Positions 6,199 through 40,973 of a stretch of DNA of 64,000 bases are shown here, one piece after another. Each line of letters opens with the position of its first letter. Position 1 is the stretch's first letter. The translations under genes were made by a program, and so were the position numbers. Under the pieces are notes generated by a model, which had not been told where the DNA came from, ran no database searches, and saw only the letters and a program-made list of their open reading frames with translations. The stretch spans positions 7,516,001-7,580,000 of the forward strand of contig NZ_LN831790.1 in assembly GCF_001013905.1 (NCBI RefSeq), written 5' to 3'. The stretch is from Streptomyces leeuwenhoekii. GTDB lineage: Bacteria > Actinomycetota > Actinomycetes > Streptomycetales > Streptomycetaceae.

Positions 6199-7444
6199 CG
6201 GACGCCTCGCGGTCGGTGGCCCCGGCCGACGGGAACGGCTCGGTGAGCACCGACAGGGCGTTGGCGGCGGCCACCGCGTGGTGCGTGGCCAGTTCGGCGG
6301 TCTCGGCCTCCGCGTAGACGATGCCCGCGTAACCGCGGCTGTCGGCCAGGTGCTCGACAGGGTCGCCGACGGACCTGACCGGGTACCAGGCCGGCGACCC
6401 CGGCATGTCCGCCAGGCGTTCCAGCCCGGCGACGCCGGTGAACACCCCGGGCCCGGCCGGGTAGCCCAGGACGAAGGCGACCGCGGGCCCGCCGGGCAGG
6501 TCCGCGTCCATGAGGCGGGGACGGCGGCCGAGCGCGGCCTCGATCATCGCCTCGTACACGTTGACACCGAGCGCCCGGCACAGGCCCTCGCCGACCAGTG
6601 CGCCACCGATCCGGGGATTGATCTCGACGACCTCCGGGCCGCCGGCGGTCAGGACGAACTCCACGTGCGCGAAGCGGTCGGTGTAGCCGATCGCCGCGAG
6701 CACGTCACCGAGCCACCGCTCCAGCGAGGCCCGCCGGGCCTCCGGGAAGGCCACGGGGAAGGCGGTGACCTCCTCCCGGAAGTACGGCTCCGGCGACATC
6801 AGCCGGCTGGAGACGCCCAGCAGCCGCGTCCGGCCCGCCCAGGTGAGGGTCTCGGCGCTGTACACCGGCCCGCTGAAGTACGGCTCCGCGAACAGCCGCC
6901 CCTTCAGCTCCCGCCCGGCCGCCTCGTCCAGGGCCCCCGCCAGCTCCGCCTCGTCGCGGACCAGCCAGACGTTCTGGCTTCCGGTACCCGCCGTGTCCTT
7001 CAGGACGGCGGGCAGACCGACCTCCTTGAGCACCACCTCCTCCGTACCGCGCCCGGTGACCTCCACGGCTCGCCCGCGTGTCAGACCGGCACCGTGCAGG
7101 CGGTTGCGTACGGCCGCCTTGTCCCGGGTCAGCCTCAGTACGGCCGGGTCCAGTCCGGGCAGGCCGAGACGTTCCGTGAGGTCCGCACCGGCCGGCGTCC
7201 AGGTGTCGGTGGAGCTGATCAGGCCACGCACCCCGGGGGTCCGGCGCAGCACTTCTGCCACGCGCTCCACGTCGAAGGTGTCGGTCTCCACGACATCGAG
7301 GGCATCCGCCGCGAGCCGCTCCAGTTCGTACGTGTAGCAGGAGGGGTCCCGGGTGAGCAGGACCAGCCGTTCGCCGAGCGTGTCGGCGGCGCGTACCAGG
7401 TGACCGAGTCCGAAGGTGAGGGACTCCAGGCAGACGACGCTCAT
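6191..7444 (-). CDS. ATP-grasp carboxylate-amine ligase
   Basis: This 417-aa protein has a pre-ATP-grasp Rossmann-like N-domain (residues ~1-100), then the ATP-grasp core: a Lys-bearing strand in PAVLKDTAGTGSQNVWLV, EPYFSGPVYSAETL, and the metal-binding end HVEFVLTAGGPEVVEINPRIGGALVGE, which holds the two Mg-binding acidic residues and Asn. These are features of L-amino-acid ligases and related amide-forming enzymes that pass through an acyl phosphate. ATGA overlap with the PLP gene indicates coupled translation. In this operon it probably joins the amino acid made by the kinase and PLP pair to another carboxylate or amine. Substrates are inferred only. Confidence 0.87.
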   Translation of the reverse strand: MSVVCLESLTFGLGHLVRAADTLGERLVLLTRDPSCYTYELERLAADALDVVETDTFDVERVAEVLRRTPGVRGLISSTDTWTPAGADLTERLGLPGLDPAVLRLTRDKAAVRNRLHGAGLTRGRAVEVTGRGTEEVVLKEVGLPAVLKDTAGTGSQNVWLVRDEAELAGALDEAAGRELKGRLFAEPYFSGPVYSAETLTWAGRTRLLGVSSRLMSPEPYFREEVTAFPVAFPEARRASLERWLGDVLAAIGYTDRFAHVEFVLTAGGPEVVEINPRIGGALVGEGLCRALGVNVYEAMIEAALGRRPRLMDADLPGGPAVAFVLGYPAGPGVFTGVAGLERLADMPGSPAWYPVRSVGDPVEHLADSRGYAGIVYAEAETAELATHHAVAAANALSVLTEPFPSAGATDREASGG

Positions 7445-31927: not shown

Positions 31928-33319
31928 GTGGACGGTGAGCACGCGCAAGCGGACCGGCCGCGGGGCCGCGGCGGCCGGGGAGGCGCCGGTCGGACACGCC
32001 CGTCACCGCGTCCGCGAGGCGACCTCCCAGAGCACCGGGGACGTACGTCACCGCCGGGCACGGCGCGGACCGGGGGCGGTTCTCGGCGGCCCTCCGGCCG
32101 ATGGGCCCGCTCGCTCCGGGGCACCGGTGCCCTCGACCACCCGGCCCCCCGCCGTGCGCCCGCCGCAGGACGCGGCGCGTTGCTGGTGACGCTGGTGGCC
32201 CTCGCCGTCCTGTGCGGGTGTACGGGTGGCAGTCGGGTGTCCTCGACGCGGGAGCCGCCCGGCAGCGGGACGGAAGAAGAGGTCGAGCGCGCTGTCGAGC
32301 GGTTGGTGCGCACCGATGGCTTCCCCGCCGCCCTGGCCGCGGTCACCGACGGCGACGGCCGGGTCCGCGACTACACCGCGGGCGCCGCGGACCTGGCCAC
32401 CGGCGCCCCGGTGCCGGTGAACGGGCGGGTGCGCGCGGCGAGCAACACCAAGACCTTCACCGCCGTGGTCGTACTGCAGCTGGTCGGCGAGGGGCGGGTC
32501 CGCCTGGACGGCCCGGTGGAGACCTACCTGCCCGGGCTTCTGCGCGGAGACGGCATCGACGGCCGTCGCGTCACCGTACGCCACCTGCTGCAGCACACCA
32601 GCGGACTGCCCGACTACACCGAGTCCCTGTCCGAGGACCCCTTTCCCCGCCGGGACCGCTACACCCCGCCGCGCGAACTGCTGGACCTGGCGCTCGCACA
32701 CCCGGCACGCTTTCCTCCCGGGGCCCGGTGGGAGTACAGCAACACCAACTACGTCCTCGCCGGGCTGCTGGCTCAGGCGGTCACCGGCCGCCCGCTGGCG
32801 GAGCTCGTCACCCGCCGGATCATCGAACCGGCCCGGCTCCGGCACACGTACTTCCCCACCGCCGGGGACCGGCACATCCGCGGCCCGCATCCCAAGGGCT
32901 ACCACGCCACCCGGCCCGGCCGGGAACTGAAGGACATCACCGTGATGGACCCCTCCTGGGGATGGGCGGCCGGCCAGCTCATCACCACCCCGCGCGACCT
33001 CAGCCGCTTCTACACCGCCCTGCTGAAGGGGGACCTGCTCGAACCCGCCCAACTACGGCAGATGCGCACCACCGTCGGCGCCGAGGACCTGTGGCCCGGC
33101 GCCCGGTACGGGCTCGGCCTGGTCAGCACCCCGCTGAGCTGTGGCGGCCTTGCGTGGGGACACGGCGGCGACATCCCCGGATTCCACACCCGCGGCGGCG
33201 CCACCGACGACGGGCGCTCCGCCACTCTCGCGTTGACCGCCCTGCCGACCGCCCTGCCCGACGCCAAGGCCGCGGCCCGGCACGTCCTGTCCGCGGTCGA
33301 CGCCGCGCTGTGCGACTGA
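31928..33319 (+). CDS. Serine hydrolase, beta-lactamase/DD-peptidase family
   Basis: The penicillin-binding fold motifs are clear: SNTK (SxxK nucleophile) in AASNTKTFTAVV, YSN in WEYSNTNYVLAG, and HGGDIPGFH in place of KTG. Before them a hydrophobic stretch, ALLVTLVALAVLCGC, looks like a lipoprotein signal ending at CGC. The GTG at 31928 (with GAGAGGG upstream) is a guess: it gives a 463-aa protein with about 80 Arg/Pro-rich residues before the signal, so the true start may be later. It probably acts outside the membrane as a D-alanyl-D-alanine carboxypeptidase or esterase. Confidence 0.8.
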   Translation: MDGEHAQADRPRGRGGRGGAGRTRPSPRPRGDLPEHRGRTSPPGTARTGGGSRRPSGRWARSLRGTGALDHPAPRRAPAAGRGALLVTLVALAVLCGCTGGSRVSSTREPPGSGTEEEVERAVERLVRTDGFPAALAAVTDGDGRVRDYTAGAADLATGAPVPVNGRVRAASNTKTFTAVVVLQLVGEGRVRLDGPVETYLPGLLRGDGIDGRRVTVRHLLQHTSGLPDYTESLSEDPFPRRDRYTPPRELLDLALAHPARFPPGARWEYSNTNYVLAGLLAQAVTGRPLAELVTRRIIEPARLRHTYFPTAGDRHIRGPHPKGYHATRPGRELKDITVMDPSWGWAAGQLITTPRDLSRFYTALLKGDLLEPAQLRQMRTTVGAEDLWPGARYGLGLVSTPLSCGGLAWGHGGDIPGFHTRGGATDDGRSATLALTALPTALPDAKAAARHVLSAVDAALCD

Positions 33320-33485
33320 CCTGCCGTGGACAGGACGCCCCGGTCGTCCGACGGCCGGCGCACGGAGCCGCCCACCCACCGACGACCACCCCCCGGCGCA
33401 GGCCAGGCCCCGAGCGGCAACCCCGGCGAACCGGTCGAGGCGGCGGGCGCGAGCATTTCCCGGCCGGGGCGACCGGGGCGGCGGG

Positions 33486-33990
33486 GGTGCCTCTATGTCT
33501 TTCGTCAAGCCTTCCGTGGGGTTCTGGGTTCGTAGAAGGATCCGTCGCGGAGCATGGCGAAGAGGACGCTGGTGCGGTGGCGGGCGAGGCGGAGGAGGGC
33601 CTGGGTGTGGGTTTGCCTCTGGCTCGGCAGCGGTCGTTGTAGGTGCGGGAGGCGGGATCGTGCAGGGTGGCGAACGCGGAGAGGAACATCGCGCGTTCGA
33701 GCTGCCGGTTCCCGCCTCGCGGGGCGTACTCGCCGTGGATCGAGGATCCCGACTGCCTGGTGGCCGGTGCGAGGCCGGCGTAGGAGGCCAGGTGGGCGGC
33801 GCTGGGGCCGACGGTGGCCAGGAGGACTCCGGCGGTCCTGACGCCGATGCCGGGCATCGAGGTCAGGACCTTCGGAAGAGGGTGGGCCTCCAGCAGGGCT
33901 TCGATGTGGGCTTCCAGGGCCCGGCGTTTTTCGTGGACAGCGGCCAGCGACTTGGCCAGCGACGGCACGATGACGTCCAGTGTGCCGGTG
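33486..33990 (-). pseudogene. IS110-family transposase remnant, truncated and frameshifted
   Basis: Only the C-terminal part remains: LPKVLTSMPGIGVRTAGVLLA (helix-hairpin-helix), HLASYAGLAPATRQSGSS and GNRQLERAMFLSAFATL. Near 33611-33618 the frame shifts by one base, because KPTPRP should read KTHTQA, and the neighbouring frame continues THTQALLRLARHR and AMLRDGSFYEPRTPRKA to a stop. The N-terminal DEDD catalytic half is missing. The sequence after the stop (CTTGACGAAAGACATAGAGG) looks like the right end of such an element. It sits just upstream of the cyclodipeptide synthase cluster. Confidence 0.8.
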
Positions 33991-34161
33991 CCTGCCCGGG
34001 AACAAGCCGAACCGGCAAAACTGGTGATGTCCGATTATATCACGCATTTTGCGATATGGGAACAACCTGCTACCGTGATTTGATCCGGGCCGGGGGGGAG
34101 ACACGGCTGCCTCCTTCGCTTTGCCGGCAAGGACCTCGTCGCGGCAGAGCAGGAGGAACTC
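33991..34161 (+). promoter_or_regulatory. AT-rich leader and candidate promoter of the CDPS cluster
   Basis: This gap is markedly AT-richer than its surroundings. Candidate elements are TTGCGA (34049-34054) and TACCGT (34071-34076), 16 bp apart, and an imperfect dyad with ATATC/GATAT arms at about 34035-34055 that could be an operator. Confidence 0.35.
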
Positions 34162-34920
34162 ATGCCGTACGTCTCTTCCTTCACGCTGGAGCCCTTCAAC
34201 GAGAACTGCCGGATCGTCTGCGACGAAAGAGAGCACGTGGTCCTCGGCGTCAGCCCGGGGAATAGTTATTTCCGGGTGAGCAGACTCGCCGACCTGCTGC
34301 GATGGCTGTGCGGGGAATTCCGTCGAGTGGACGTGGTAATCCCGGACTCGGGCCTGCACCACACGTATCTGGCCCTCGGTTACTCGCCCGAGCGGGCGGC
34401 CAAAAAGGTGCGGGGCGAGACGAGCGTCCTGCGCAACCGCGTGCTGCGGGGCTGGGAGTTGAGCGGCTGTCCGCAGGACGGCAACGGGCTGTATCTCATG
34501 TCGGCACTCACGGCGCGGCCGAGTTACCAGCGGCTGCTGGCGCACGTCCGGTCCGCCCTGGACGCGGACGAGGACCTGCGCGCGGTCGCGCTGAGGATGA
34601 CCCGGGAGGCGCTGATCGCCCGGGGGCACATCGCGGAGCCCAGCCGCGAGCAACTGGAGTGCGGACTGCAGTACTTGGTGGCGGAACTGCCGTTCTTCAT
34701 CGGCTCGGCGGACATCTTCGACGTGCCGTCGTCCGTGTGCTTCTACCACCGGCCGATTCCCCTGGCGGACCTCATCTTCGACTACCGGTCCCGGCTGCTC
34801 CCGTCCCCCCGGCAGGGATACGCACTGGTCTCGCCCACGGAACTCCAGACAGACGTGACCGCCCCGGCGGATGACGGCGGCCGGTATCAGCGAGACACGA
34901 AGGAAGTCGGCCGCACATGA
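34162..34920 (+). CDS. Cyclodipeptide synthase (NYH type)
   Basis: This 252-aa protein matches tRNA-dependent cyclodipeptide synthases. VVLGVSPGNSYF holds the catalytic Ser and the Asn of the NYH signature. CGLQYLVAELPFFIGS holds the conserved Tyr and Glu (AlbC Y178/E182 equivalents). SVCFYHRPIPL holds the Tyr-His of NYH. The enzyme couples two aminoacyl-tRNAs into a diketopiperazine. A strong SD (AGGAGG) sets ATG 34162. Its stop overlaps the start of the prenyltransferase/methyltransferase gene (ATGA). Because the neighbours resemble indole-C3 tailoring enzymes, a Trp-containing cyclodipeptide is the best guess. The amino-acid specificity pockets were not analysed. Confidence 0.93.
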   Translation: MPYVSSFTLEPFNENCRIVCDEREHVVLGVSPGNSYFRVSRLADLLRWLCGEFRRVDVVIPDSGLHHTYLALGYSPERAAKKVRGETSVLRNRVLRGWELSGCPQDGNGLYLMSALTARPSYQRLLAHVRSALDADEDLRAVALRMTREALIARGHIAEPSREQLECGLQYLVAELPFFIGSADIFDVPSSVCFYHRPIPLADLIFDYRSRLLPSPRQGYALVSPTELQTDVTAPADDGGRYQRDTKEVGRT

Positions 34921-36878
34921 GCCAGCGAGAACTCACCGCGGCGGGGCTGACGTCCCCCCGCCTGCGCCGGGCCTACGCCGCCTGCAACGCCTATCTGCAC
35001 CAGCGGAACTCGGCCGCGTTCCCCGCGATCCGCGTCCTGCTGCCACCGGGCAAACGGCCCTACTGGGACGCCGCGTTGGCGTTCTGCACCCACGTCGACG
35101 ACATCCTGGACGATCCGGCGACGACCGTCGAGCGGAGGCTGGCCCGCTACAGCGCGTACGAGCAGGACCTGTACCGCCTGATGGCGGGGGAGGAACCGGT
35201 GGCCGCCGGGCAGCCGGGCGGGATGGGGGGGCAACTGGCCCTCGCCTTCCAGCACTTCGTACGGACCTGGGGCATCCCCGAGTCCTCCGTACGCCGGTTC
35301 ATGACCACGATTCGCACGGATCTGGAGGTGACCGAGTATCCGCGCTACGTGGACCTGGCGGAGTACATCGAGGGCGTCTGCGTGCAGGGCACGCTGTGGG
35401 GCAACACGCTGCTGGAGCCACGGGACGAGGAGGCGGCGGCCCGCGCGGCCGGCGCCGCCAGCTTCGCCCTCCAGCTCACCGACTACCTCCAGGACCTGGG
35501 GGAGGACCTGGGGGACGGGCGGCTCTACCTTCCGCTGGAGGAGCTGGAGGCGTTCGGCCTCGGCCGTGCGGACATCGAACAGGCGGCCCGCGACCGGCGG
35601 ATGACCCCCGCGCTGCGGGAACTGGTGGAGTACCAGGTCCGCAGGGCGCGACGGTACTTCGACGAGGCGGCCGACTGGTGGCGGCTCGTGGACCCGTCCG
35701 GGTGCGAACTGCCCCGGCAGTGCGTGCGGCTCGGGCGGATCAGCCTCGACCGGATCGAGCGCTCGCGGTACGACATCTTCCGGTTGCCCCGGCGGGTGGC
35801 CCTGGCCTGTTCCGCCGCGTCCTGCGCCGAGTTCGCCGCCGGATACCTGCGGAAGACCGCCGCCGCAGGCCGGGCCCGGGGGGCGGCGGGGAGGGCTCGT
35901 CGCGACGGCTGTCCGGCCCCCGGCGCGCGCCGCCGCGGAGACGGACCGGTGACGGCCCCGGGCGTCGTCGGCACCCCACGGTATGACCCGCCCCTCGGCG
36001 AAAGCCGTGAACGCGGTCAACTCGGCGAACTCGATCAAGGAAATGCCATGTACCAGTCCGGCATCCGCTCCCAGGAAGACGTACAGGAGCTGTACGACAG
36101 GGCGTCGGAGAGGTTCGCGGCCCTGTACGACGACAATCTGCACTTCGGGTACTGGGACGACGACGCCGACGACTCCCTCGCCGCCGCCACCGACCGGATG
36201 ACGGACCTGTACATCGAAGCCCTCGCCACCACCCCCGGGCGGCGGGTGCTGGACGTCGGATGCGGGACCGGCAGGCCCGCTCTGCGCCTGGCCGGGGCCA
36301 GTGGGGCGGAGATCGTCGGCATCTCCCTCAGCGACGGGGAGGTGAAACGGGCCAACGAGCGCAGCCTGCGCGAGGGGCGGGAGCGGCAGGTGCGATTCGA
36401 GCGGGCCGACGCGATGGCGCTGCCGTACGGGCCCGGCTCCTTCGACGACGCGTGGGCGCTGGAGTCCCTGGGTCACATGCCGGACCGCGCGCAGGCGCTG
36501 CGGGAGATCGCCCGCGTCCTGCGGCCCGGCGGACGGCTGGTGATCGCCGACGGCTACTGCTACGAGGGCCCCGTCGACGCCGCCGGCGTCGCGCTCATGG
36601 ACCGCCTGTGCGCGGCCTTCCGGATGGTTCCCCCGCCCACCCTGGACGGGTATGCCGACCTGCTGGCCGCCGCCGGGTTCACTGTCGTGGAGCGCAGGGA
36701 TCTCTCCCCGCACGCCCGGCGTTCGATGACCCGGCTGATCGAGATCATGGAGGAGAAGTCCGGGGAGATGGCCCCGCTCCTGGAGGAAGAGGCCTTCGCG
36801 CGGCTGCTGGAGACCCTGCAGGCGGCCGCGCCCTCAGACCTGATGGGGTACGTCCTGCTGACCGCCCAACGTCACTGA
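34917..36878 (+). CDS. Phytoene-synthase-like prenyltransferase fused to SAM methyltransferase
   Basis: One uninterrupted 653-aa frame encodes two enzymes. Residues ~1-315 are a squalene/phytoene-synthase-type domain with THVDDILDDP (first Asp motif) and QDLGEDLGDGRLYLP (second Asp motif), as in the indole C3 prenyltransferases of drimentine and nocardioazine clusters. Residues ~315-377 are a Gly/Arg/Pro-rich linker. From residue 378 (ATG 36048, preceded by AAGGAA) comes a class I methyltransferase: YDRASERFAALYDDNLHFGYW, LDVGCGTGRPALRLA and VLRPGGRLVIADGY. It overlaps the CDPS gene by 4 nt. It probably prenylates and methylates the cyclodipeptide. The internal start could also give a free methyltransferase. 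A sequencing error joining two genes cannot be excluded. Confidence 0.85.
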   Translation: MSQRELTAAGLTSPRLRRAYAACNAYLHQRNSAAFPAIRVLLPPGKRPYWDAALAFCTHVDDILDDPATTVERRLARYSAYEQDLYRLMAGEEPVAAGQPGGMGGQLALAFQHFVRTWGIPESSVRRFMTTIRTDLEVTEYPRYVDLAEYIEGVCVQGTLWGNTLLEPRDEEAAARAAGAASFALQLTDYLQDLGEDLGDGRLYLPLEELEAFGLGRADIEQAARDRRMTPALRELVEYQVRRARRYFDEAADWWRLVDPSGCELPRQCVRLGRISLDRIERSRYDIFRLPRRVALACSAASCAEFAAGYLRKTAAAGRARGAAGRARRDGCPAPGARRRGDGPVTAPGVVGTPRYDPPLGESRERGQLGELDQGNAMYQSGIRSQEDVQELYDRASERFAALYDDNLHFGYWDDDADDSLAAATDRMTDLYIEALATTPGRRVLDVGCGTGRPALRLAGASGAEIVGISLSDGEVKRANERSLREGRERQVRFERADAMALPYGPGSFDDAWALESLGHMPDRAQALREIARVLRPGGRLVIADGYCYEGPVDAAGVALMDRLCAAFRMVPPPTLDGYADLLAAAGFTVVERRDLSPHARRSMTRLIEIMEEKSGEMAPLLEEEAFARLLETLQAAAPSDLMGYVLLTAQRH

Positions 36879-36890
36879 CCGGTGGAAACA

Positions 36891-36934
36891 CCCGAAGGCG
36901 GCGGCCCAGGGGATCGGGGGCCGCCGCCTTCGGG
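36891..36934 (+). terminator. Strong terminator of the CDPS cluster
   Basis: A perfect 17-bp stem (arms 36891-36907 and 36918-36934) with a 10-nt loop starts 12 nt after the stop of the fused gene. Confidence 0.8.
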
Positions 36935-37022
36935 CGTGCTCGGGGGGTGGGTTGGACCGGCTCGGTACCAGCCGTTGGCCTGCCAGAAGTCCACGCGCCG
37001 GCCGGGCTGCCGTAGCGCGAGT

Positions 37023-37380
37023 TCAGTCCAGACCCCACTTGATCTGGGTCTTGGCGTTGGTTCTCCAGTCGGCGCCGGCGGCGGCCATCTCGGAGCCGGG
37101 CAGGGCCTGGACCAGGCCGTAGGCGCCGGAGGAGGGGGTGGTCGCGTCGACGCCCTTCTGCTGGACGCGGCCGTCGAGGCGGGTGAGCATGCCCAACCGC
37201 ACCGTGACGCGGGGCATCACCCGCAGGCGCCTGTGCTCGGGCTGGGGCACCCGGTCCGGTGCCCCGTCGAACCAGTAGATCCGCAGCAGTGGCTGCCCGG
37301 TCTCGCTCTGCGCTCGTGCGCGGATCTGCTGGATCAGCCCTGAGTAGTCGACGGACAGACGCGAGCGCGCGGCGTCGTCT
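37023..37380 (-). pseudogene. Chimeric remnant: NYN-domain fragment joined to a transglycosylase tail
   Basis: The minus-strand frame is open from an upstream TAA (37381-37383) to 37023. Its first part (LSVDYSGLIQQIRARAQ, PLLRIYWFDGAPDRVPQPE, RVTVRLGMLTRLDGRVQQKG) matches the N-terminal half of NYN/PIN-like nuclease-fold proteins. After GVDA the text becomes SSGAYGLVQALPGSEMAA and DWRTNAKTQIKWGLD, the C-terminal end of a Streptomyces SLT lytic transglycosylase. Neither family is complete and no start codon suits the front part. The join at about 37138 looks like an illegitimate recombination point. Confidence 0.7.
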
Positions 37381-37412
37381 TAAACGGCCCTTAAGCGCCG
37401 GTTAAGCGGTCC
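37380..37412 (+). promoter_or_regulatory. Three 11-bp direct repeats upstream of the glucanase
   Basis: TTAAACGGCCC, TTAAGCGCCGG and TTAAGCGGTCC follow each other without gaps at exactly 11-bp spacing, one helical turn, as in binding sites of OmpR/PhoP-family response regulators. They lie about 125 nt upstream of the GH64 start. Confidence 0.5.
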
Positions 37413-37535
37413 CGGCACGAGGCCCGAAACGGCTCCCCGTGCGTACCATCGGGCCCTGACGGAGCGCTCCCACGCCTCTCGTCTGTCATGTTCCCGTCAG
37501 TAGAGCATCGGCAAGCCCATCAGGAGGCCCCCCAC

Positions 37536-39625: not shown

Positions 39626-40253
39626 GCCGTTGACGCCGGCGGTCGCGAGCCGGGTGCGGTCCCGGCCGTCGCCGTTCCACCGCTCCAGGTGCGGTGCCAG
39701 TTCCTCGGGTACGGTCTTGGCCGCGAGAAGTGTGCCGGTGCCCGACAGTGTGGCCTGGGCCCGGCTCCACAGGGCTGTCACCCGGGCGGCGTCGGCCAGG
39801 GTCAGGGCGCCGGCCACATGCGCGGCGGCGATCTCACCGAGGCGGTGCCCGAGGACGGCGCAGGGCTCGATTCCGTGCGAGCGCCAGAGCTATGCCAGCG
39901 ACACCATGAGGGTGAACATGGTCGGTTGCGTGACGTCGGTGCGATCGAGCGCCAGGCCGACCGAGGCGTCCGGGGCACCCCGCAGTACGCCTTCGACGGA
40001 CCAGTCGAGGTTACGGGGCGAGCGCGTCGGCGCAGACGCGCACGCTCTCGCGGAACACCGGGGAGCCGGCCCACAGTTCCGCCCCCATACCCGGCCACTG
40101 AGCCCCCTGGCCGGGGAAGACGAAGACCCCCGCGTCCGCGGACCCATCGGCCGACCCTTCTTCGCCGTGCGGTGTGTCTCGTGCACTTGTCGTCTCCTCA
40201 CCGCTCGGCAGGGATGGGCGGCCGCATCGCAGGGCGAAAGTCGCCGAAGGCAT
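39626..40253 (-). pseudogene. Broken type I PKS acyltransferase domain
   Basis: Three pieces of one acyltransferase domain follow each other on the minus strand: [19 protein letters not shown], then (after a one-base frameshift near 40015) [13 protein letters not shown] and DVTQPTMFTLMVSLA, then an in-frame TAG at 39890-39892, then LWRSHGIEPCAVLGH and GEIAAAHVAGALTLADAARV. The nucleophile motif GHSxG reads GHRLG, so the active Ser is lost. No ketosynthase or ACP is nearby. It is a decayed fragment of a modular PKS that ends abruptly at the SDR remnant. Confidence 0.8.
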
Positions 40254-40524
40254 TCCGAGGCAGGGGAGAGCCCGGCATGGAGAATACTTTCGCCGTCGGC
40301 CGCGCGCCGGAGTCGTCTCCTCAGAACAGTGATCGCCGGACGACCCTGGTAACCCCTATCGACCCCAGACGTATTCGGCTATCTTCCTGCTCACCCCTAC
40401 GAGTTCCGGGTCCGGGCATCGATCACATTCCCGTCCCCCGTGTGTCGCCTGGACCCTGGCACAGTAATCGGTGACGTCGCGACCTCACGCGTGGCCGGAA
40501 TGCGGATCTGGCCTCGGGCCTGGC

Positions 40525-40835
40525 CCCATGCATCAAGAGCACCACCACCGGCCGCGCACCGAGGTGATGCTGCACGGTCTGGAACAGATCCCGCGCAAGG
40601 AGATCGAGTACCGGGACACGGCCTTCACCGGGATGGACGTCGACGCGGTGCTGGCCCGCCGTCCGCAGGTGGCGCTGGTGGACGAGCTCGCCCACACCAA
40701 CGTGCCCGGCTCCCGCAACGCCAAGCGCCGGCAGGACGTGGAGGAACTGCTGGCCGCCGGCATCGACGTGATCTCGACGGTCAACATCCAGCATCCGGAG
40801 TCGCTGGGCGACGTCGTGGAGTCGATCACCTACGG
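40525..40835 (+). pseudogene. KdpD sensor-domain fragment
   Basis: About 95 residues match the N-terminal universal sensor domain of the potassium sensor kinase KdpD: EVMLHGLEQIPRKEIEYRDT, FTGMDVDAVLARRPQVALVD, ELAHTNVPGSRNAKRRQDVE and AGIDVISTVNIQH. The Walker A motif before it and the whole kinase part are missing. The text ends at VVESITYG, where an IS481-type transposase tail begins. Confidence 0.8.
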
Positions 40836-40973
40836 CCCTACACCAGCAACACCGAACGAACAGCAGCCCTGGCGGACCTCCTGCACACCTACAACCACCA
40901 CCGCTGCCACACCGCACTCGGCGGCCACCCACCGATCAGCCGCGTGAACAACCCTGCGGGACAATACACCTAG
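40832..40973 (+). pseudogene. IS481-type transposase C-terminal fragment
   Basis: In a different frame from the KdpD fragment, PYTSNTERTAALADLLHTYN, HHRCHTALGGHPPISR and VNNPAGQYT-stop form the C-terminal 45 residues of an IS481-family DDE transposase (conserved YNxxRxHxAL). Its stop overlaps the end of the esterase gene on the other strand. The rest of the element is absent. Confidence 0.8.

What the first reader, a model, noticed from the sequence alone, without database searches (positions are those of the whole stretch)
34162..36878. Compact cyclodipeptide synthase cluster with prenyltransferase and methyltransferase
Seen: an NYH-type CDPS overlaps by 4 nt a gene encoding a phytoene-synthase-like prenyltransferase and a SAM methyltransferase, framed by an AT-rich leader and a 17-bp terminator. 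Known: CDPS plus phytoene-synthase-like indole C3-prenyltransferases occur in drimentine clusters, and with methyltransferases in nocardioazine-type clusters. Inferred: this locus makes a prenylated and methylated (probably Trp-based, hexahydropyrroloindole) diketopiperazine. No membrane terpene cyclase or P450 is present, so the product should differ from drimentines.
Basis: partly seen in the sequence, partly recalled or inferred. Interest (0 to 1): 0.8.

Follow-up and report, generated by a model that had tools for sequence, protein, structure and literature searches.

The report
Known streptoazine gene pair, fused enzyme
Two overlapping soil-bacterium genes make a ring from two tryptophans and then add prenyl and methyl groups; this is the already published streptoazine pathway of Streptomyces leeuwenhoekii, with one small clue about how its double enzyme arose.

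Summary
An NYH cyclodipeptide synthase (34162-34920) overlaps by 4 nt a 653-aa gene (34917-36878) holding a phytoene-synthase-like prenyltransferase and a SAM methyltransferase; a strong stem-loop follows. The window is the Streptomyces leeuwenhoekii C34T chromosome: the genome's length equals the sum of the three published replicons, and one CDPS gene was found in it. The pathway is in print: Zhang et al. 2021 (title only seen), and a later paper describes SazB-PT and SazB-MT, cited under one accession, which prenylate cyclo(L-Trp-L-Trp) at C3/C3' and methylate indole N1 (streptoazines). Another paper (title only) covers S. aurantiacus; I found a locus of that species at 81-85% protein identity. 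One detail absent from the text I could read: in S. aurantiacus the two enzymes are separate genes. An 8-nt difference shifts the frame here, so translation passes the old prenyltransferase stop (kept out of frame at 35950) and runs through the former intergenic stretch into the methyltransferase, whose ribosome site and ATG remain. The fusion is a recent frameshift fusion or, less likely, an assembly error.

The parts
34000..34099 (+). AT-rich leader, likely promoter region of the gene pair (inferred)
   Evidence: 60-base windows with GC 0.45-0.57, against 0.65-0.73 per 60 bases at 33900-34019. In the scan of 33400-37400 the only sigma-70-like site lies on the minus strand, 34062-34034. Part of the stretch can be aligned with the S. 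aurantiacus leader.
34151..34156 (+). ribosome-binding site AGGAGG of the CDPS gene
   Evidence: read from sequence
34162..34920 (+). cyclodipeptide synthase, NYH subfamily; would use two Trp-tRNAs to make cyclo(L-Trp-L-Trp)
   Evidence: PF16715 E 5.3e-72, TIGR04539 E 6.7e-72; solved relatives 2x9q, YvmC, AlbC; cyclo-Trp-Trp from PMC10156859; one CDPS match in the genome
34917..36878 (+). SazB: prenyltransferase-methyltransferase fusion gene (653 aa)
   Evidence: PMC10156859 gives accession CQR65853 for both SazB-PT and SazB-MT
34917..35845 (+). phytoene-synthase-like (PSL) indole C3 prenyltransferase domain
   Evidence: SQS_PSY; best solved relatives LvqB4 (1.7e-38) and CqsB4 (1.8e-37), then HpnC (1.1e-19), CrtM (3.8e-10); tree place
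35878..35883 (+). run of six G inside the stretch where the frame is shifted relative to S. aurantiacus
35950..35952 (+). old prenyltransferase stop codon (TGA), now out of frame
   Evidence: in its own frame the preceding DNA still reads ...VRPPARAAAETDR*, against ...VRPAARPAAETDR* in S. aurantiacus
35953..36047 (+). former intergenic stretch, now translated as linker
   Evidence: codon-position GC 0.85/0.55/0.64 over 33 codons, against 0.73/0.49/0.93 in the prenyltransferase core and 0.74/0.49/0.93 in the methyltransferase
36037..36050 (+). old ribosome-binding site (AAGGA) and ATG of the methyltransferase, kept inside the fusion
   Evidence: aligns with GAGGA...ATG of the separate S. aurantiacus gene
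36048..36878 (+). class I SAM methyltransferase domain (indole N1 methylation according to the literature)
36888..36937 (+). stem-loop, probable terminator without T-run
33639..33869 (-). remnant of an IS116/IS110/IS902-type transposase upstream of the leader; not part of the pathway
   Evidence: PF02371 E 1.9e-15, residues 54-130 of the stretch 33505-34028 given

Best explanation
This is the saz (streptoazine) locus of Streptomyces leeuwenhoekii C34T. The CDPS takes two Trp-tRNAs and makes cyclo(L-Trp-L-Trp). The N-terminal half of SazB prenylates indole C3 and C3', which closes the pyrroloindoline ring; the C-terminal half N-methylates the indole. The enzyme activities are from the literature, not shown here. 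Inferred here: SazB arose from two separate genes, still separate in S. aurantiacus, through an 8-nt indel that moved the reading frame past the prenyltransferase stop and through the intergenic stretch into the methyltransferase frame.
For: The locus, at 7,550,162-7,552,878, lies in that paper's antiSMASH cluster 30, 'Terpene-t2pks' 7,530,162-7,588,405. One CDPS match in the genome. Published CDPS pathway of this species and streptoazines: (title and passages). Domains. Frameshift: alignment with S. aurantiacus, conserved out-of-frame C-terminus, no stop in the fusion frame at 35800-36047 where the other two frames have one and two. Prenyltransferase and methyltransferase lie in separate ORFs in 6 of the 6 loci holding both matches, among 12 loci examined.
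Against: The primary paper (PMC8208138) is not held, so gene coordinates and the SazB sequence could not be compared letter by letter. That CQR accessions belong to this assembly is recalled. The CDPS pocket motif alone does not single out Trp. The stretch causing the frameshift is G-rich, and the assembly needed correction at G/C runs (PMC4487206), so the fusion could be an assembly error. In three of the six split loci the methyltransferase is only 29-33% identical and probably no orthologue, and one of the six is S. aurantiacus itself. Codon-position GC of the tail before the old stop is no proof of a frameshift: the S. aurantiacus tail, in its true frame, departs too (0.78/0.76/0.86).
Confidence: 0.95

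Rival explanations
1. The pathway is as above, but the fusion is an artefact of the assembly: the real chromosome has separate prenyltransferase and methyltransferase genes, as in S. aurantiacus.
For: The old prenyltransferase C-terminus and stop are still readable one frame away, and the methyltransferase ribosome site and ATG are intact. The frame change lies in a G/C-rich stretch with a run of six G, the error type named by the genome paper.
Against: The genome paper corrected such runs with Illumina reads. The difference from S. aurantiacus is 8 nt, so a wrong base count would have to fall on top of a real indel. Both domains are cited under one accession, and methyltransferases fused to a phytoene synthase in Streptomyces CDPS clusters were reported by Skinnider et al. 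2018 (section 11 read; strains not named there, possibly the same record).
Confidence: 0.15
2. The prenyltransferase half is a carotenoid or squalene synthase and the locus is a mixed terpene cluster.
For: antiSMASH 2 called the region Terpene-t2pks; Pfam SQS_PSY; HpnC (112.7 bits), HpnD and CrtB models match weakly; the solved HpnC 4hd1 matches at E 1.1e-19.
Against: All five NCBIfam matches of the domain are far below their cut-offs, e.g. HpnC 112.7 against 250.45. LvqB4 and CqsB4 (E 1.7e-38, 1.8e-37) rank above HpnC and CrtM (that they prenylate carbazoles is recalled). It groups with the 10 other PSL rows, 7 of them with a CDPS match in the same fetched locus, apart from this genome's four other SQS_PSY proteins; support 86/91, drawn open by the program, two long branches.
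Confidence: 0.02
3. The product is not Trp-based (for example a Tyr or Phe cyclodipeptide).
For: P1 motif VGVPMFFC matches the Tyr motif VGVTMLFN and the Phe motif VGITMFFV at 5 of 8 places, but the Trp motifs LGIPLFFV and LGVALFFA at only 4 of 8.
Against: PMC10156859 states that SazB acts on LL-cWW. The NCBIfam cyclodityrosine synthase model scores 150.9 against a cut-off of 300. Phe at 186 and Pro at 207, contrasted with DmtB1-3 as cWW-type by Yao et al. (PMC6173783), are present, though other specificities share them. A C3 indole prenyltransferase is coupled to the gene.
Confidence: 0.02

Closest known systems
saz / streptoazine pathway, Streptomyces leeuwenhoekii (Zhang et al. 2021, AEM 87:e02525-20; title and citations seen only)
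   Same: same species, the one CDPS found in the genome, PSL prenyltransferase and methyltransferase under one accession
streptoazine pathway of Streptomyces aurantiacus (Liu et al. 2021, J Nat Prod 84:3100; title seen only); my locus L002 is strain NRRL ISP-5412, the strain of the paper was not seen
   Same: same gene order, 4-nt CDPS/prenyltransferase overlap, 81% (CDPS), 85% (prenyltransferase) and 84% (methyltransferase) protein identity
   Different: prenyltransferase and methyltransferase are separate genes, 121 nt apart
nocardioazine B pathway (noz, ncd, noz2; PMC10156859, abstract and passages)
   Same: cyclo-Trp-Trp, PSL prenyltransferase, methyltransferase
   Different: spread over several loci, D-configured substrate made by an isomerase; that paper finds no significant similarity between SazB-MT and NozMT
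drimentine pathway (dmt; PMC6173783, passages)
   Same: CDPS and PSL prenyltransferase attacking the indole
   Different: cyclo(Trp-Xaa) substrate, farnesyl group, membrane terpene cyclase; none seen here
griseocazine pathway (gcz; as described in PMC10156859)
   Same: PSL prenyltransferases on LL-cWW
   Different: exo prenylation, two prenyltransferases (GczB, GczC), according to that paper

Membership tests
Cyclodipeptide synthase, NYH subfamily | CDPS family by sequence, above curated cut-off | tested here: met
   PF16715 242.5 bits against cut-off 27; TIGR04539 241.6 against 45
Cyclodipeptide synthase, NYH subfamily | catalytic Ser37, Tyr178, Glu182 and N40/Y202/H203 | tested here: met
   all six identical to AlbC (roles recalled)
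Cyclodipeptide synthase, NYH subfamily | makes cyclo(L-Trp-L-Trp) | tested here: inconclusive
   pocket motif VGVPMFFC / MEAARIP equals none of the motifs in Table 2 of PMC5816076; LL-cWW as SazB substrate from literature
PSL indole prenyltransferase | two Asp-rich motifs of the SQS_PSY fold | tested here: met
   DDILDD and DYLQDLGED read in the translation; that these are the motifs is recalled
PSL indole prenyltransferase | groups with CDPS-linked PSL enzymes, not carotenoid/squalene synthases | tested here: met
   15-row tree, 86/91 support, 84% of 200 bootstrap trees (branch drawn open, few rows, chosen by me); PDB ranking
Streptoazine (saz) locus | lies in the S. leeuwenhoekii chromosome and is its CDPS locus | tested here: met
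Streptoazine (saz) locus | one protein carrying both prenyltransferase and methyltransferase | tested here: met
   open frame 34917-36878
Streptoazine (saz) locus | same sequence as CQR65853 | not testable with these tools
   primary paper not held; no tool used here gives that record
Streptoazine (saz) locus | makes streptoazines | not testable with these tools
   literature only
Drimentine (dmt) locus | membrane terpene cyclase next to CDPS and prenyltransferase | tested here: not met
   none among the 6 neighbouring proteins scanned at 28-42 kb

The most novel reading that the evidence does not exclude
SazB is a very young gene fusion made by one frame-shifting indel. Its transcript still carries the old prenyltransferase end (one frame away, after a run of six G) and the old methyltransferase ribosome site and start, so the cell may make the fused enzyme, free methyltransferase and, by slippage, free prenyltransferase from one message.
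Probability: 0.25. Interest if true: 0.4.

Novelty: already known. Interest (0 to 1): 0.15.

Why it matters
The pathway itself adds nothing new: organism, enzymes and product class are in print. What may be useful is that the S. leeuwenhoekii / S. aurantiacus pair looks like a clean before-and-after example of how two neighbouring biosynthetic genes fuse by a frameshift, with the old stop and start signals still legible, and that the fusion deserves a sequence check before it is used as a bifunctional biocatalyst.

Tried and rejected
Carotenoid/squalene synthase reading: rejected by family cut-offs, PDB ranking and the tree. RNA element at 33000-37500: none in Rfam at gathering threshold. Defence system: one PADLOC hit, mad2, E 2.1e-21, over the methyltransferase part only; taken as generic methyltransferase similarity. 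Pocket-based prediction of the amino acid: left undecided. The eight P1 and seven P2 positions are recalled; Gondry et al. call position 119 the fourth P1 residue, whereas in my list it is the fifth. Search for further fused copies: none found. The scan of genome contigs gave 2 loci from 14 candidate stretches, only the S. aurantiacus one over residues 1-653. Plasmids: 503 records with a match, 0 covering 80% of the query. One search looked at the loci L001-L064, most with about 1.5 kb flanks, and listed no further locus with prenyltransferase and methyltransferase matches in one frame. Papers looked into without use: PMC10727000 (reference list passages), PMC10092475 (one passage).

Full report
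What is there. The gene pair exists as described. The CDPS ORF runs 34162-34920 with AGGAGG before its ATG, and the second ORF starts inside the CDPS stop (ATGA at 34917) and ends at 36878. Pfam and NCBIfam place the first in the tRNA-dependent cyclodipeptide synthases over the full profile; the best solved relatives are 2x9q, YvmC and AlbC. The six catalytic or NYH residues that I checked are kept (roles recalled). The second ORF is a prenyltransferase of the squalene/phytoene synthase family followed by a class I methyltransferase. The methyltransferase half is closest among solved structures to 3bus, 6uv6 and MitM. The stem-loop after the pair is strong (-45 kcal/mol, z -6.57). The AT-rich leader is 60-100 bases long; an IS110-type transposase remnant (Pfam match at about 33639-33869, minus strand) lies some 130 bases upstream of it.

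Where it is from. The genome that holds the window has 8,122,491 bases in 3 contigs. The S. leeuwenhoekii C34T genome paper gives 7,903,895, 86,370 and 132,226 bases for chromosome, pSLE1 and pSLE2 (PMC4487206, passages); the sum is exactly 8,122,491. The pair lies at 7,550,162-7,552,878, inside that paper's antiSMASH cluster 30, 'Terpene-t2pks', for which its table gives no product. A family search finds one CDPS gene in the whole genome. For comparison, 64 of 199 genomes of the genus have a CDPS match.

What is in print. PMC10156859 (abstract, passages, first part of the reference list) cites SazB-PT and SazB-MT under one accession, CQR65853. It says that SazB-PT prenylates LL-cWW at C3 and C3' in streptoazine assembly and that SazB-MT methylates indole N1 of LL-cWW; its source is Zhang et al. 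[quoted passage not shown] A review cites the same paper for streptoazines A to C (PMC11610984, passages). I could not read the paper itself. A second paper, by title, covers the streptoazine pathway of S. aurantiacus (reference-list passages of PMC12394179 and PMC11055893; not held). Skinnider et al. 2018 mention methyltransferases fused to a phytoene synthase, or to the CDPS, in two families of Streptomyces CDPS clusters (PMC5767969, section 11). With one CDPS in the genome, the identification with saz is close to certain, though it was not checked letter by letter.

How it works. Reported in the literature: LL-cWW as substrate, C3/C3' prenylation, N1 methylation. From sequence here: the CDPS pockets do not exclude Trp, but they do not prove it either. 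The P1 motif VGVPMFFC agrees with the Trp motifs LGIPLFFV and LGVALFFA at 4 of 8 places, and with a Tyr and a Phe motif at 5 of 8 (motifs from section 11 of PMC5816076). Phe at AlbC position 186 and Pro at 207 agree with what the dmt study calls cWW-type (PMC6173783, passages), but other specificities share them. The prenyltransferase groups with 10 other PSL rows, 7 of which have a CDPS match in the same fetched locus, apart from this genome's four other SQS_PSY proteins (support 86/91, a branch that the program draws as open; 84% of 200 bootstrap trees; two of the four have long branches). The names CrtB-like, HpnC and HpnD for those rows are my guesses.

The fusion. Searching for relatives gave one full-length orthologous locus, in S. 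aurantiacus NRRL ISP-5412 (L002; the same contig, judged by its length of 20,329, as G048). There the prenyltransferase stops at 7042-7044 and the methyltransferase starts at 7166 in another frame. In the window 8 nt are missing relative to S. aurantiacus; MAFFT puts the gap after 35865, its exact place in the G/C-rich stretch is uncertain. In the shifted frame the old tail is still legible, VRPPARAAAETDR followed by TGA at 35950, against VRPAARPAAETDR* in S. aurantiacus. The fusion frame has no stop at 35800-36047. Codon-position GC is 0.73/0.49/0.93 in the prenyltransferase core and 0.74/0.49/0.93 in the methyltransferase. For the 33 codons after the old stop it is 0.85/0.55/0.64, similar to the S. 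aurantiacus intergenic stretch read in the methyltransferase frame, 0.75/0.68/0.60, so that stretch looks non-coding in origin. The 28 codons before the old stop (0.93/0.93/0.79 in the fusion frame, 0.93/0.79/0.93 in the old frame) are less telling, because the S. aurantiacus tail in its true frame also departs (0.78/0.76/0.86). The former ribosome site and ATG remain (AAGGA, 6 nt, ATG). Among 12 loci examined, 6 hold both a prenyltransferase and a methyltransferase match, and in 6 of 6 they are separate ORFs. In three of these (L066, L071, L072) the methyltransferase is only 29-33% identical; in L068 and L074 it is 53-55%; L065 is S. aurantiacus itself. The ten free PSL enzymes in the set run 311-348 aa from the start of the match to the stop, near the 344 aa that the old stop would give here. 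I take the split form as ancestral and the fusion as derived and recent.

Doubt about the fusion. The genome paper reports that most differences between PacBio and Illumina sequence were missing C or G in runs, and that these were corrected with Illumina data. A residual error in the G-rich stretch could turn two genes into one frame, but the 8-nt difference as a whole cannot be a single miscount. I give the artefact about 15%. The primary papers may already discuss this; I could not read them.

Verdict.

Noticed in passing
L074 5064-8117 (genome G200), compare L068: A methyltransferase 55% identical to SazB-MT, a tryptophan-dimethylallyltransferase-family gene (PF11991, E 7.7e-18) and a PSL prenyltransferase (45% to SazB-PT) stand in a row with no match to the window's CDPS within the 14 kb fetched; the same genome has a CDPS plus PSL pair elsewhere (L067). 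Possibly a tailoring locus split from its CDPS, as in the nocardioazine pathway.
   Followed up: partly
window 33639-33869, minus strand: IS110-type transposase remnant (PF02371) about 130 bases upstream of the AT-rich leader.
   Followed up: partly
window 40440-40970: A KdpD sensor-domain fragment (PF02702) overlaps a frame with a weak integrase-core tail (PF13683, 19.8 bits, below the cut-off of 26.5), and an acyltransferase-domain fragment (PF00698) lies at 40011-40253 on the minus strand: it looks like a patch of broken genes.
   Followed up: no
L070 6128-6868 and 6865 onward (genome G047): The more distant CDPS/PSL pair there shows the same 4-nt overlap (CDPS frame ends at 6868, prenyltransferase match starts at 6865), so translational coupling of the two genes may be general.
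   Followed up: no
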